Source: Nitrospira sp.
Lineage (GTDB): Bacteria > Nitrospirota > Nitrospiria > Nitrospirales > Nitrospiraceae
Assembly (NCBI GenBank): GCA_030123605.1
Contig: CP126123.1
Span: 2,832,001 to 2,896,000 of the forward strand
Direction: 5' to 3'
DNA: 64,000 bases
The position numbers and the translations under genes are program-made. Under the pieces are notes generated by a model that saw nothing but the letters and a program-made list of their open reading frames with translations, was not told the DNA's origin and did no database searches. Each line of letters starts with the position of its first letter. The first letter of the stretch is position 1. Below, one piece after another: positions 14,804-20,285 of the stretch.

Positions 14804-14839
14804 TTGCATGACAAGTCACATTACAAGAGGGGGCACACT

Positions 14840-15766
14840 GTGCGGTTTCAGCAAACGATCGGATCTCAAGTTTCCTGCTCCGGCATTGGCCTCCATTCAG
14901 GCCAACCGGTCACATTGACCCTCCGTCCAGCTCCCCCTAATACAGGCATCGTCTTCGTGTATCGCAACGGCTCCGGAGAGACGCTTCTTCCTGCTGCCGT
15001 ATCCAACAAAGTCCCGACTGAACTTTGCACAGCCATCAGTGTCAATGGCCACCAGGTCAAGACTATCGAACACCTTCTGGCAGCCTTGGTCGGGATGGAA
15101 ATCGACAATGTTTACGCTGAAGTCGACGCAGGAGAAATCCCGGTTCTGGATGGAAGCGCCAGCCCGTTTGTGCGCCTTATTCGCACGGCCGGCGTGATTC
15201 CCCAAGCCCGTCGGCAGTCCTACGTGAAAATTACGCAGCCCATTGAGGTGACGGATGGAGCCCGGCGCGTCAGAATCGAACCTTCTTCAACGCCAAGGAT
15301 TACCTACTCCATCCACTACGACCATCCGCTGATTCAAACCCAATCGTACAGCTACACCTGTTCCGCAGCGGCGTTCGAGCAGGAAATTGCAACGGCTCGG
15401 ACGTTCGGCTTTTTACACGAAGTCCAGGCTCTCTGGTCACGAGGTCTCGGAAAAGGCGGGACGCTGGATAATACGGTCGTGCTGTCGGAAGAAGGTGTCG
15501 TCAATCAATCCGGTTTGCGGTTTCCGAATGAGTTTGTACGGCACAAGGTGTTGGACCTGATCGGGGACATCGCCCTCCTCGGTTTCCCATTCATCGGTCA
15601 TATCGTGGCCGAGCGCTCTGGTCACGCCATGCACACTCGACTCGTCGAACAAATCCTCGCTCAACGCGACAAATGGGCGCTGATCACGTCGGAACCTTCA
15701 CCGGCCGCCACGGAATCGCGCCCCTCCATCGGATTGCTTCGTCCGACTCCATCTCTCGCCGTCTAA
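14840..15766 (+). CDS. lpxC: UDP-3-O-acyl-N-acetylglucosamine deacetylase
   Basis: LpxC is the committed zinc deacetylase of lipid A synthesis. The 308-residue protein has the zinc-site motifs TIEHLLAALVGM and HKVLDLIGD (His and Asp ligands), the catalytic-region ARTFGFLHEV, and the general-base-region DGSASPF. GTG 14840 is preferred because AGAGGGGG precedes it and the protein then begins FQQTIGSQVSCSGIGLHSG, the normal N-terminus. The C-terminal tail (after about residue 285) is Pro/Ser-rich. Its presence implies a lipopolysaccharide outer membrane. Confidence 0.95.
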   Translation: MRFQQTIGSQVSCSGIGLHSGQPVTLTLRPAPPNTGIVFVYRNGSGETLLPAAVSNKVPTELCTAISVNGHQVKTIEHLLAALVGMEIDNVYAEVDAGEIPVLDGSASPFVRLIRTAGVIPQARRQSYVKITQPIEVTDGARRVRIEPSSTPRITYSIHYDHPLIQTQSYSYTCSAAAFEQEIATARTFGFLHEVQALWSRGLGKGGTLDNTVVLSEEGVVNQSGLRFPNEFVRHKVLDLIGDIALLGFPFIGHIVAERSGHAMHTRLVEQILAQRDKWALITSEPSPAATESRPSIGLLRPTPSLAV

Positions 15767-15850
15767 CGAATTCTCTTCGCACCCCTTGGCCTCGCCAGAC
15801 ATACGGTCGCCCTATCCATAGCGAGGGATGATTTTGGTGTCATAGGGCTC

Positions 15851-15887
15851 AAAAAAACGCCGAGGGTAAGTGGCCTTACCCCCGGCG
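15851..15887 (-). terminator. Rho-independent terminator
   Basis: On the minus strand a GC-rich hairpin (CGCCGGGGGTAAG / CTTACCCTCGGCG) with a four-base loop is followed by seven T. It sits 19 bases after the stop of the Lys/Ala micropeptide and would end the HARE-HTH transcription unit. Confidence 0.9.
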
Positions 15888-15905
15888 CGTAAATCCTGGT
15901 GGGAC

Positions 15906-15962
15906 TTACTTCTTCTTTGCGGTCTTCTTCGCTGGCTTCTTCGCTGCCTTCTTCGTTGCCAA
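15906..15962 (-). CDS. 18-residue Lys/Ala-rich (histone H1-tail-like) micropeptide
   Basis: From TTG 15962 to TAA 15906 the minus strand encodes MATKKAAKKPAKKTAKKK: ten Lys, five Ala, one Pro. GGAGGTGAGGAG lies just before the TTG, an exceptionally strong ribosome site, and a stop codon two codons upstream rules out a longer form. A perfect terminator follows. The KKAAKKPAKKTAKKK pattern is that of eukaryotic H1 tails and bacterial H1-like proteins, which bind DNA or polyphosphate. The gene lies 52 bases after the HARE-HTH gene on one transcript. Function is inference; expression is well supported by the signals. Confidence 0.6.
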   Translation of the reverse strand: MATKKAAKKPAKKTAKKK

Positions 15963-16013
15963 GACTCCTCACCTCCCTTCACACAATAAGATAACGTGGA
16001 TCCATCAGCCCCC

Positions 16014-16523
16014 TTACACTGCCGTCGTCAATTCCTGAGTCATCACATTGAACGTATTCGGGCCGACCTTTTGAAATCGTTTATCCCGCTTCAACGATGT
16101 CGCCACGGACGTCAACGGTGTTTTCCCTTTGATCTGCAAGCCGCCCTCCAAGAGACGCTGCAATAATTCTTTCGCATGCATGGGGCGGCTGGCTTCTCGA
16201 AGGATCTGATACGCGGCTTCCGGAACACTCTTTCCCACATACTTGCTCTTTCCAAGCAAGATCTCTCGCGACTGGTCCGTGACATCCGTCACAGGGAGCG
16301 GACGGATGCCTTTTTCATCGGTAATGATCTGGCTGGAAAGACTCGCCAGCTTGGCCTTGTCCGCCTCCACCCGATAGAGCGTTTCCGCCAATTCCAGATA
16401 TTTCTTGATCGTGGCGATTTCGTCATCAAGTCGGCGTCGTTTTTTTTCAAGCTCTTGATAGCGGTTCCGATAGGCACTGATCCGCTGTTCAAGCCCGACC
16501 AGAATGTCCGTCAACTCTTCCAC
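16014..16523 (-). CDS. HARE-HTH winged-helix protein with N-terminal coiled coil
   Basis: The 169-residue product has a coiled coil at residues about 8-65 (LEQRISAYRNRYQELEKKRR...) and, after a linker, a C-terminal HARE-HTH domain (about 95-160: VPEAAYQILREASRPMHAKEL, GKTPLTSVATSLKRD, RFQKVGPNTF). HARE-HTH domains occur in RNA polymerase delta subunit, ASXL and some restriction proteins and bind DNA. GTG 16523 is preferred over TTG 16529 by spacing to GAGG. A consensus-like promoter lies 52 bases upstream. It is followed by the Lys/Ala micropeptide in the same transcript. Confidence 0.8.
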   Translation of the reverse strand: MEELTDILVGLEQRISAYRNRYQELEKKRRRLDDEIATIKKYLELAETLYRVEADKAKLASLSSQIITDEKGIRPLPVTDVTDQSREILLGKSKYVGKSVPEAAYQILREASRPMHAKELLQRLLEGGLQIKGKTPLTSVATSLKRDKRFQKVGPNTFNVMTQELTTAV

Positions 16524-16551
16524 AAGCAAGACCTCAACAAAGCATACTTGC

Positions 16552-16580
16552 TTATTAGCAAATCTATTTCATTCTGTCAA
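16552..16580 (-). promoter_or_regulatory. Sigma-70-type promoter of the HARE-HTH gene
   Basis: On the minus strand TTGACA (16575-16580) and TAATAA (16552-16557) are separated by exactly 17 bases. The start site would fall near 16545, about 20 bases upstream of the coding start. Confidence 0.75.
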
Positions 16581-16772: not shown

Positions 16773-17594
16773 ATGCGGATTACGAATAATCCATCTCCTT
16801 CCGATCGTTCCGCGCTGCTCGCGACAGCCACTCAAGCGGCCAAGGCGGCGGGATCGATTCTCGTCGAACATGCCGAGGCCGGCTTCCAGATCGATTATAA
16901 GACGGCCGTCAACCTTGTCACTGATGCGGATCGACGCGCTGAAGATTGTATCGTCCAGACTATTCGCGCAGCCTATCCTTCGCACCGCATTTTGGCTGAA
17001 GAGCGCGGTCGCGATGGGGGTATGGATTCACCCTATCAATGGGTCGTCGATCCACTCGACGGCACGACCAACTTCGCCCATGGATTCCCGTTTTACTCGG
17101 TTTCCATCGGTCTGGAGTATGCCGGCGAATGCATTTTGGGCGTCGTATTGGACCCGGTACGTCAAGAGTTATTCACCGCCGAAAGGGGACAGGGCGCATA
17201 CGTCAACGGCGAGCGCCTCCACGTCTCAACCGTCGAGACCCTCGACAAGTCCCTGTTGGTCACCGGCTTTGCCTACAGCATTCGCGAGACGTCCGACAAC
17301 AATCTCGACCACTTTTCTCGCATCTCACTACTCGCTCAGGCTGTGCGCCGCACCGGTTCCGCCGCGTTGGACCTCTGCTATGTCGCGGCCGGCCGGTTCG
17401 ACGGATACTGGGAGGTCTCGCTCAGTCCGTGGGATATGGCTGCGGGAATCGTCGTTCTTCGTGAAGCAGGCGGAGTCGTGTCGGGCTTTACCAAAGAGCC
17501 CTTCTCGCTGTACGGGCAGAACCTCGTCGCCACCAACGGTCACATTCACGATCAGTTACTTGACGCATTACACCAACGCCCCCGGGCTTCCTGA
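16773..17594 (+). CDS. suhB: Inositol-1-monophosphatase family protein (SuhB)
   Basis: The 273-residue protein shows the metal-binding motifs of the family: ILAEERG (Glu), WVVDPLDGTTNFAHGFP (Asp-Pro-Leu-Asp-Gly-Thr) and WDMAAGIVVLREAGG near the C-terminus. These Mg-dependent phosphatases cut inositol phosphates and related sugar phosphates; SuhB also aids rRNA transcription in E. coli. The start at ATG 16773 gives a normal N-terminus. Length is typical. It is transcribed alone or with the small gene at 17733. Confidence 0.92.
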   Translation: MRITNNPSPSDRSALLATATQAAKAAGSILVEHAEAGFQIDYKTAVNLVTDADRRAEDCIVQTIRAAYPSHRILAEERGRDGGMDSPYQWVVDPLDGTTNFAHGFPFYSVSIGLEYAGECILGVVLDPVRQELFTAERGQGAYVNGERLHVSTVETLDKSLLVTGFAYSIRETSDNNLDHFSRISLLAQAVRRTGSAALDLCYVAAGRFDGYWEVSLSPWDMAAGIVVLREAGGVVSGFTKEPFSLYGQNLVATNGHIHDQLLDALHQRPRAS

Positions 17595-18073: not shown

Positions 18074-18406
18074 ATGGACCACTACTACCATGCGAAAGAT
18101 CTCGCCAAGTTCGGAGATATCGGAAAGGGCAATCCGGCCCTGTGGGAAAAATTCATGAGTTACTACAGTGCGGTCTTTGCAGAAGGCGCGCTCACGGAAC
18201 GGGAAAAGGCCTTGATCGCACTCGGGGTGGCGCATGCCGTGCAATGTCCCTATTGCATCGATGCCTACACTCAAGCCTGCCTCGAAAAAGGATCGAATAC
18301 GGAAGAAATGACCGAAGCCGTCCATGTGGCCTGCGCCATTCGCGGCGGCGCGTCACTCGTGCATGGCATGCAGATGAGGAACGTCGCCGAGAAACTCTCG
18401 ATGTAA
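18074..18406 (+). CDS. AhpD/CMD-family (carboxymuconolactone decarboxylase-like) protein
   Basis: The 110-residue protein is a single CMD domain with the redox motif CPYCID (Cys at about 57 and 60) following VAHAVQ, and a helix ending AIRGGASLVHGMQM. Proteins with this CxxC act as alkylhydroperoxidase-type thiol reductases; similar small forms accompany arsenosugar genes in other bacteria. None of those partners is here. It lies 71 bases after the small gene at 17733 and is convergent with the radical SAM gene. Confidence 0.85.
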   Translation: MDHYYHAKDLAKFGDIGKGNPALWEKFMSYYSAVFAEGALTEREKALIALGVAHAVQCPYCIDAYTQACLEKGSNTEEMTEAVHVACAIRGGASLVHGMQMRNVAEKLSM

Positions 18407-18422: not shown

Positions 18423-20285
18423 TTACCAGTGAGGATGCTCAGGAATCGCGAGGGTGAAATATTTTCCCCGCTCCTCGTAGAGGATGCGTTTGGCAGTCAA
18501 CTGCACCAATGACTCCATCAAGGCGCTGTCCGACACCGCATCGCCACCGCCTTGCTCTCGAATGGCCTGCTTCAACTGCTCCGGAGACTTGGGCGCCTCA
18601 TTGCAGGCGTCGATAAGGAAGGCTCCGGGCCAATCGAACCGCTCGCGGGTCGGCGCTGACGGCGTCCGGCCGTCATACACCGTCACATAGCCGAAGGCCT
18701 TCGAGTAGTAGAGAAAGGGTTTGTCCGACGACGCGGCGCGGCGCTGCCATTCCTGCACAACCTCCACCAGTTCCCGGTAAACATCGGGATCGACCGCCCA
18801 CCGGTCCAATTCGTATTCGAAATCGTAGGCGATTTTCATCAGATCAACTCGACGCCCGTCATACACATAGGGGTAGGCGAGGCCGGGGCCGACGATGCGC
18901 ACCCCATACTCGTGCGGACGTGTGTAATAGGGGCTGAACCGCTCCAACCAGAATTTCCCGGCCCCTTCAGGAGGCTGCAGATGGAAGAGCGAGGGAATGA
19001 TCTCGATTTGCCGACGGTAGTCTTCGTTGGTCTCTCCAGGAAACCCAAGCAGAATATTCCAGGACACGGCGACACGATAGTAATAGCACCACTTCAGACA
19101 CACAAGGTTCTGCATCGGGGTCACGCCCTTGTCCATCGCGCGCAGCTGCGCCTGACTCAGGCTCTCCAGTCCCGGCTGCATGCATTTCACCCCACCGGCC
19201 GCGAGCAGCTTGATCTGACTCTTCTGCAGGTTGCTCTTGGTCTCGATGAACACGTCGAGATCACGTCGGTCCTGCGCAAACGTACCGAAAAGATTCTCGA
19301 CGTACTTCATGTCGATGATGTTATCGACCAGACGGAACCGCGTCGTATCGTAACGGCTGGACAGATAGGCCATCTCGCGCGCGACCTGCTCGGACGATTT
19401 CGCCCTGAACTTCATGCTCTGCGCATTGAGGCCGCAAAACGTACAGTGATGTTTCTCGCCCCACCAGCAGCCGCGCGAACCTTCGTACAAGAGAATACGA
19501 TCCAGACCGCGCGATGCCTCGGTACCAAGCTCGGCCAGCAGATGGTAATAGTCGTCATAGTCGGGCGGGCCGGTGTGGGCAAACTCCGTGAAGAGGGCAG
19601 GATTCGGTTCGAACTTGATGTGACCGTCCTGTCGATGGGTCACGCCTTTGGGGTACGCCCCGGTCGATGCGTTCAGGATATGGGTGACCAAGGCGGGAAA
19701 CGTCACCTCACCCTCACCGACGACTACATGGTCGATAAACGGGAAGGCCCGAAAATATTCCAGTCCCATCTCACCGTCGAAATTGGCGCCGCCGAAGACG
19801 ATCCTGACATCGGGATAGAGATCCTTGATGAGCTTGGCCATCGTGAGGCTGGCCACATTCTGATCGAAGGTCGAGGTAAAGCCCACGATTCGGTACTGCC
19901 CCCAATCGATCGACGTCATGGCGGCCGTCAAGAACTGCGGTGCCGTGCGCGTCGCCATCTCTTCGAAAAACGACACCGGCCTTCCGCTTTCGCGGGCCAG
20001 CTGCTCGAACACGGGCTTGAACACCTGCGGATACTCGGCGCGCTTCGGATTGTCCCGAAAGAGCAGGTAGGAGAACAGCCACTCGCCGAAAAGCGCGCGC
20101 TTCTCACAGATCGATTCGTACAGAGGGATTCCGATCTTATGCGCGAACTGCACATTAAGGTGGTGACAATCGACCCCGATGCCCTTCGATTTCAAAAGCG
20201 CGGAGAGCGTGCCCAATTGAATGGAGGGATACTTCGAATAACTGAAGGGCATGTTGACGAGCGCCACCTGGGCCCTGTCACTCAT
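18423..20285 (-). CDS. B12-binding radical SAM enzyme of the RiPP-maturation type
   Basis: The 620-residue protein has an N-terminal cobalamin-binding-like domain (about 5-200, with GFTSTFDQN and VFGGANFDG) and a radical SAM core. The iron-sulfur site is RGCWWGEKHHCTFCGLN, with Cys 273, 281 and 284 in a CX7CX2C spacing rather than the usual CX3CX2C. The GCWWG/CTFCGLN form is that of the RiPP-maturation radical SAM C-methyltransferase group (TIGR03975 type). Such enzymes modify ribosomal peptides. No Nif11- or NHLP-type precursor is visible next to it; the gene stands alone between CMD and the pterin dehydratase gene. Substrate is unknown. Confidence 0.8.
   Translation of the reverse strand: MSDRAQVALVNMPFSYSKYPSIQLGTLSALLKSKGIGVDCHHLNVQFAHKIGIPLYESICEKRALFGEWLFSYLLFRDNPKRAEYPQVFKPVFEQLARESGRPVSFFEEMATRTAPQFLTAAMTSIDWGQYRIVGFTSTFDQNVASLTMAKLIKDLYPDVRIVFGGANFDGEMGLEYFRAFPFIDHVVVGEGEVTFPALVTHILNASTGAYPKGVTHRQDGHIKFEPNPALFTEFAHTGPPDYDDYYHLLAELGTEASRGLDRILLYEGSRGCWWGEKHHCTFCGLNAQSMKFRAKSSEQVAREMAYLSSRYDTTRFRLVDNIIDMKYVENLFGTFAQDRRDLDVFIETKSNLQKSQIKLLAAGGVKCMQPGLESLSQAQLRAMDKGVTPMQNLVCLKWCYYYRVAVSWNILLGFPGETNEDYRRQIEIIPSLFHLQPPEGAGKFWLERFSPYYTRPHEYGVRIVGPGLAYPYVYDGRRVDLMKIAYDFEYELDRWAVDPDVYRELVEVVQEWQRRAASSDKPFLYYSKAFGYVTVYDGRTPSAPTRERFDWPGAFLIDACNEAPKSPEQLKQAIREQGGGDAVSDSALMESLVQLTAKRILYEERGKYFTLAIPEHPHW

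What the first reader, a model, noticed from the sequence alone, without database searches (positions are those of the whole stretch)
15851..16580. HARE-HTH protein and an 18-residue H1-tail-like peptide form one compact transcription unit
Seen: a consensus-grade promoter (TTGACA-17-TAATAA), a HARE-HTH gene, a very strong ribosome site before TTG 15962, the peptide MATKKAAKKPAKKTAKKK and a perfect terminator 19 bases later. Known: HARE-HTH proteins bind DNA; Lys/Ala repeats compact DNA or bind polyphosphate. Inference: a nucleoid or transcription factor made with a basic co-peptide. An ORF this small would be missed by gene callers.
Basis: partly seen in the sequence, partly recalled or inferred. 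Interest (0 to 1): 0.6.

Follow-up and report, generated by a model that had tools for sequence, protein, structure and literature searches.

The report
Ancient DNA-binder–polylysine micropeptide gene pair
A gene for an 18-amino-acid, almost pure lysine-alanine peptide, too short for ordinary gene finders, is real: nearly every Nitrospira relative that could be read keeps it right after the same DNA-binding-type protein gene, and several lineages keep the tiny peptide even after losing that partner.

Summary
On the minus strand the window carries a coiled-coil/HARE-HTH gene (16529-16014), then a near-perfect 12-base ribosome site, an 18-aa ORF (MATKKAAKKPAKKTAKKK, 15962-15906) and a hairpin with a T7 tail. 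All 88 readable HARE-bearing loci from distinct genomes of the phylum, in two classes, have a Lys/Ala-rich ORF (11-113 aa, most with the same ribosome site) just downstream, as do 77 of 77 in a partly overlapping named set; none occurs in 875 kb of control sequence. In outgroups the ribosome site overlaps the HARE stop codon. In the 12-aa class, 26 different DNA sequences encode the same peptide. In about 13 genomes (at least six independent events) the HARE gene is decayed or deleted, yet promoter, ribosome site, peptide and hairpin persist between the same neighbours. So the peptide is a conserved gene with its own value, not only a co-peptide. Most likely it is a disordered polycation, like an H1 or AlgP tail encoded as a separate chain, that binds polyanions (DNA, RNA or polyphosphate); this function is inferred, not shown. 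One clade has lost both genes. The 'consensus-grade' promoter and 'perfect' terminator are mildly overstated.

The parts
16552..16580 (-). Promoter: -35 TTGACA (16580-16575), 17-base spacer, TG-extended -10 TAATAA (16557-16552)
   Evidence: Sequence. Homologous position is TTGACA-17-TATAAA in most relatives, and the promoter is retained in genomes that lost the HARE gene
16014..16529 (-). HARE-HTH gene, 171 aa (TTG start, or GTG at 16523): long N-terminal helix 2-71, linker, winged helix about 102-162
   Evidence: Pfam PF05066 51.4 bits; AlphaFold2 model mean pLDDT 79, N-terminal helix and winged helix confident; present across the phylum
15968..15979 (-). Extended Shine-Dalgarno AAGGGAGGTGAG
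   Evidence: Duplex energy -21.2 kcal/mol, strongest in the window; present before the peptide ORF in nearly every relative; overlaps the HARE stop codon in outgroups
15906..15962 (-). Micropeptide gene, TTG start, 18 aa MATKKAAKKPAKKTAKKK
   Evidence: conserved in 88 of 88 HARE-bearing loci and 77 of 77 named loci; substitutions mostly synonymous
15889..15909 (-). Small hairpin over the peptide stop codon (GUAAGUCC-CACCA-GGAUUUAC)
   Evidence: Folding; kept within the genus, sometimes with G-U pairs; role unknown
15850..15888 (-). Terminator-like hairpin (14-pair stem, loop GCCA) and T7 tail
   Evidence: stem covaries and loop GCCA is kept in most of the family, but the T-run is missing in many relatives

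Best explanation
This is an ancient two-gene unit of the phylum Nitrospirota. One near-consensus promoter makes an mRNA for (1) a coiled-coil plus winged-helix (HARE-HTH) protein, weakly initiated, and (2) a separately and apparently strongly initiated, disordered, purely basic Lys/Ala(/Pro/Thr) peptide, and it ends in a conserved hairpin. Shown here: the unit, its conservation, mostly synonymous change in the peptide, length variation from 11 to 113 aa at constant composition, ribosome-site overlap with the HARE stop codon in outgroups, and survival of the peptide after repeated HARE loss. Inferred: the peptide works through its positive charge, as an H1/AlgP-type tail supplied as a separate chain, neutralising or condensing polyanions (nucleoid DNA, RNA or polyphosphate), and the winged-helix protein is a DNA- or RNA-polymerase-bound partner that can direct this but is not required for it.
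For: Pairing at 88 of 88 HARE-bearing loci and 77 of 77 named loci with no control hits. Ribosome site GAAAGGAGGTGA or GAAAGGGGGTGA forms the HARE stop in several outgroups, implying translational coupling. HARE decayed or lost but promoter-SD-peptide-hairpin kept in G029, G050, G059, G388, G040, G048, G044, G039, G043, G058, G067, G075 and, with an altered start, G056, at the same IMPase-LpxC site; these fall at six or more places on an LpxC tree. G259 has a relocated copy without HARE. In the 12-aa class 26 distinct DNAs encode MATKKAAKKKKK; 14 of 21 observed variants are synonymous where 19% of possible changes are (p = 2.7e-6). Peptide residues are 53% K, 32% A, 7% T, 6% P, with no acidic or aromatic residues. 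HARE model resembles RNAP delta, linker-histone globular domains and Rok. KPAA-repeat peptides bind DNA, and AlgP organises polyphosphate granules (PMC9239181).
Against: No expression or binding data. One f1 clade (G032, G051, G034) seems to lack both genes, so the unit is dispensable. Within the window's genus the peptide's third codon positions are far more conserved than those of HARE (0.94 against 0.62), which a pure composition constraint would not need and which leaves room for an RNA-level role. No homology of the peptide to AlgP or Hc families can be shown. The fold matches are to the common winged-helix arrangement.
Confidence: 0.6

Rival explanations
1. The conserved thing is an RNA element: SD, purine-rich stretch and hairpin act as a 3' stabiliser or 3'-derived small RNA, and translation of the mini-ORF is incidental or serves mRNA protection.
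For: In the genus the block from SD to T-run is sharply bounded: third positions 0.94 against 0.62 in HARE, downstream flank about 0.3. The hairpin and its GCCA loop are kept even where the T-run is gone. Decayed HARE leaves a leader of about 170-450 nt between promoter and SD.
Against: Outside the genus Ala codons drift as fast as in HARE. The peptide varies from 11 to 113 aa at constant composition while the RNA sequence changes completely. No Rfam match.
Confidence: 0.18
2. The peptide binds polyphosphate or granules, as AlgP does, rather than DNA.
For: Similar composition to AlgP KPAA repeats (PMC9239181).
Against: No gene-neighbourhood link to polyphosphate metabolism was seen: neighbours are IMPase, LpxC and a response regulator. 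The literature search gave nothing specific for Nitrospira.
Confidence: 0.15
3. The pair is an RNA polymerase accessory: HARE acts like the delta subunit's N-terminal domain and the basic peptide modulates nucleic acid in the polymerase.
For: Best structural match is B. subtilis delta, Z 8.9, 72 residues, 2.7 A; delta's disordered tail acts on RNAP by charge (PMC7749165).
Against: Delta model TIGR04567 scores 14.5 bits against a cut-off of 42; delta's tail is acidic and in the same chain, while here it is basic and separate; linker-histone and forkhead domains score nearly the same Z.
Confidence: 0.13
4. Chance ORF in a GA-rich 3' untranslated region.
For: Very short; TTG start.
Against: Phylum-wide conservation, strongest ribosome site, mostly synonymous change, no control hits.
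Confidence: 0.01

Closest known systems
AlgP / PhaF (Pseudomonas H1-like KPAA-repeat proteins)
   Same: Lys/Ala/Pro-rich disordered basic repeats; helical partner region
   Different: There the repeats are the C-terminus of one chain; here they are a separate ORF that can shrink to 11-18 aa; no homology detected
Linker histone H1 (winged helix plus K/A/P tail)
   Same: Winged-helix module plus K/A/P tail; the HARE domain matches H1 globular domains at Z 7.9-8.4
   Different: Two chains, extra N-terminal helix, fold match is to a common fold; no sequence homology shown
RNA polymerase delta subunit (RpoE, HARE-HTH)
   Same: HARE-type winged helix; best fold match Z 8.9
   Different: N-terminal long helix and C-terminal HARE (reverse order), no acidic tail; NCBIfam cut-off not reached
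Rok (B. subtilis xenogeneic silencer)
   Same: C-terminal winged helix at Z 7.7, small nucleoid-type protein
   Different: No sequence relation shown; no basic peptide partner known to me
Chlamydial Hc2 / Burkholderia H1-like proteins (NF038052, NF038053)
   Same: Lys-rich repeats of variable number (PMC2848022, abstract)
   Different: Hc2 is 165-237 aa; the longest relatives here score 11-20 bits against cut-offs of 135 and 80

Membership tests
HARE-HTH (PF05066) | Pfam model above gathering score | tested here: met
   51.4 bits against 25.9
HARE-HTH (PF05066) | Winged-helix fold | tested here: met
   AlphaFold2 model, residues 102-162; delta and other winged-helix matches
RNA polymerase delta subunit | TIGR04567 above cut-off | tested here: not met
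   14.5 bits against 42
RNA polymerase delta subunit | Long acidic disordered C-terminal tail in the same chain | tested here: not met
   The HARE protein ends about 10 residues after the winged helix; that end is short and not strongly acidic
RNA polymerase delta subunit | Binds RNA polymerase | not testable with these tools
   Needs pull-down
H1-like / AlgP / Hc proteins | Lys/Ala/Pro-rich basic repeat composition | tested here: met
   53% K, 32% A, 7% T, 6% P
H1-like / AlgP / Hc proteins | Curated family model above cut-off | tested here: not met
   At most 19.8 bits against 80 for NF038053; 11.2 against 135 for NF038052, with the longest relatives as queries
H1-like / AlgP / Hc proteins | Binds DNA or polyphosphate | not testable with these tools
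   Needs binding assay
Linker histone | Winged helix and basic tail in one chain | tested here: not met
   Two separate ORFs; distance and frame between them vary
Linker histone | Homologous globular domain | tested here: inconclusive
   Z 7.9-8.4, tied with forkhead and delta
Rok-type nucleoid protein | Oligomerising N-terminus plus C-terminal winged helix | tested here: inconclusive
   Long N-terminal helix predicted; Rok Z 7.7; oligomer not tested
Intrinsic terminator | GC-rich hairpin followed by T-run | tested here: met
   In the window; T-run absent in many relatives

The most novel reading that the evidence does not exclude
A phylum-wide, split linker-histone-like chromatin system in bacteria: a winged-helix 'globular' subunit and a separate H1-tail micropeptide, in which the tail, down to 11-12 residues, is the more persistent and self-sufficient part and acts as one of the smallest nucleoid- or polyanion-organising proteins known.
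Probability: 0.25. Interest if true: 0.82.

Novelty: new variant of a known kind. Interest (0 to 1): 0.64.

Why it matters
It adds a deeply conserved 11-18 aa gene to Nitrospira, major nitrite-oxidising and comammox bacteria, that ordinary gene finders (minimum about 30 aa) would miss. It shows that an H1/AlgP-type basic tail can be encoded as a separate gene and kept when its DNA-binding-type neighbour is lost. This makes the question of what a free polycationic tail does in a bacterial cell testable. It also gives a clear gene-pair marker for annotation across the phylum.

Tried and rejected
Peptide as part of a longer or fused protein: distance and frame to the HARE stop vary from genome to genome, so separate translation; in-frame readthrough is possible only in a few outgroups with a single stop. 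Peptide as a genomic repeat: the KKAAKK pattern and the hairpin core are unique in the genome. SD/anti-SD pairing with the C-rich stretch after the stop: looked at by eye and by one fold, no convincing pairing, not pursued. Known RNA family: none in Rfam. Solved relative by sequence: only coiled-coil matches. Literature on HARE-HTH or Lys-rich small proteins in Nitrospira: nothing specific found in the open library; subscription journals were not searchable.

Full report
What is there. The window lies in a 4.32-Mb single-contig genome whose close relatives are Candidatus Nitrospira defluvii (FP929003, 97% identity in the HARE protein) and other Nitrospira. Between the divergent inositol-monophosphatase gene (16773-17594, +) and the convergent lpxC (14804-15766, +) lies one minus-strand unit: a promoter (TTGACA-17-TAATAA), the HARE-HTH gene (16529-16014), a 51-nt gap with AAGGGAGGTGAG, the ORF TTG 15962 to TAA 15906 (MATKKAAKKPAKKTAKKK) and a 14-pair hairpin with T7. 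The -10 is only 3 of 6, the stem has two G-U pairs and the stop-to-stem gap is 17 bases.

Is it more than chance? The ribosome site of the peptide pairs with the 16S tail at -21.2 kcal/mol; the best of 54 long ORFs in the window reaches -13.6 and the HARE gene itself -1.5 or -6.8 depending on its start (the 16S tail was assumed, not read from this genome). In the window's genus every locus read has the ORF. Over four families of the order, other orders of the class and a second class, all 88 HARE-bearing loci with readable downstream DNA have a Lys/Ala-rich ORF starting 6-222 nt after the HARE stop (in two of them masked N interrupts the ORF and in one the contig ends inside it). A second, partly overlapping set of named genomes gives 77 of 77, with no hit of the same kind in 875,294 strand-bases of surrounding sequence. 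Lengths run from 11 to 113 aa, composition stays Lys/Ala/Thr/Pro. Six loci show a second copy further downstream (L034, L046, L052, L055, L057, L060).

Is it coding? Among 28 distinct 12-aa ORFs, 26 encode exactly MATKKAAKKKKK. Of 21 observed nucleotide variants 14 are synonymous, although only 19 of 99 possible single changes are (p = 2.7e-6; shared ancestry is not modelled). Start codons are TTG 67, ATG 5, GTG 2. Within the window's genus third positions are unusually frozen (0.94 against 0.62 in HARE) and the conserved block ends at the T-run; outside it Ala codons drift as in HARE, Lys codons less so. So the peptide is under selection, and in this genus something extra (very high translation or an RNA role) may act too.

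Ancestral form. In outgroups of another class the ribosome site overlaps the end of the HARE gene (...GAA AGG AGG TGA), and LpxC is again the convergent neighbour, judged from the translation. The pair is therefore old, and translational coupling is likely there. In the order, a spacer separates the two genes, and the peptide is only 11-21 aa in the Nitrospira family.

Loss of the partner. In G029, G050, G059, G388, G040, G048, G044, G039, G043, G058, G067 and G075 the HARE gene is decayed, partly deleted or untraceable, yet the promoter (TTGA-17-TATAAA type), ribosome site, peptide and hairpin persist at the same site next to LpxC and, where the contig reaches, IMPase. G056 keeps the block with TTG changed to TTA and an ATG two codons later. 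G317 may be an assembly frameshift. On an LpxC tree these fall in at least six separate places (read by eye from the drawn topology; deep forks are unresolved). G259 has a relocated copy with its own promoter-like site and a GGCCAC-loop hairpin and no HARE. One clade (G032, G051, G034) has neither by these patterns. The peptide is thus separable from HARE, which argues against an obligate co-peptide.

The HARE protein. AlphaFold2 gives a long N-terminal helix (2-71), a disordered linker and a winged helix. The best structural matches are the B. subtilis RNA polymerase delta subunit (Z 8.9), linker-histone globular domains (7.9-8.4), forkhead domains and Rok (7.7). These are ties within a common fold. 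It is a HARE-HTH protein by Pfam, not a delta subunit by NCBIfam.

Mechanism. Shown: gene, unit, conservation, selection, independence. Inferred: a free polycationic tail. KPAA-type peptides bind DNA in vitro and AlgP's KPAA tail organises polyphosphate granules (PMC9239181). The strong peptide initiation beside weak HARE initiation suggests peptide excess. Binding target, HARE partnership and phenotype remain open. RNA-level, polyphosphate and RNA polymerase rivals are listed with their tests.

Novelty. The parts are of known kinds (HARE-HTH; H1-like tail). The separate tail gene, its small size of 11-18 aa in most Nitrospira and its survival without the partner are, as far as the searchable literature shows, not described.

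Noticed in passing
window 15857-15888; L038, L039, L181, L185, L190 downstream of the peptide ORF: The hairpin after the peptide covaries strongly and keeps the loop GCCA across most of the family, but the T-run is missing in many relatives, so it may not be (only) an intrinsic terminator.
   Followed up: partly
window 15906-15962, genus-level alignment: Third codon positions of the peptide are far more conserved than those of the HARE gene within the genus (0.94 against 0.62), hinting at an RNA-level constraint or very high expression.
   Followed up: partly
L034, L046, L052, L055, L057, L060: Second Lys-rich ORFs with their own strong ribosome sites downstream of the first, apparently tandem duplicates.
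   Followed up: no
window 16535-16560 and relatives: In the genus the stretch between -10 and start codon keeps AAAGCAAGTATGCTTT or close variants, an imperfect palindrome overlapping the promoter, a possible autoregulatory operator.
   Followed up: no
window genome G000:C1:2736830-2736916 (outside the window): Tandem charged repeats of KKKDEKK type found by the Lys-codon pattern; a different kind of sequence, not examined.
   Followed up: no
window 18074-18406 (+) and 18423-20285 (-): A 110-aa ORF resembling carboxymuconolactone-decarboxylase/AhpD-like proteins convergent to a 620-aa ORF resembling B12/radical-SAM RiPP maturation proteins; judged from the translation only.
   Followed up: no
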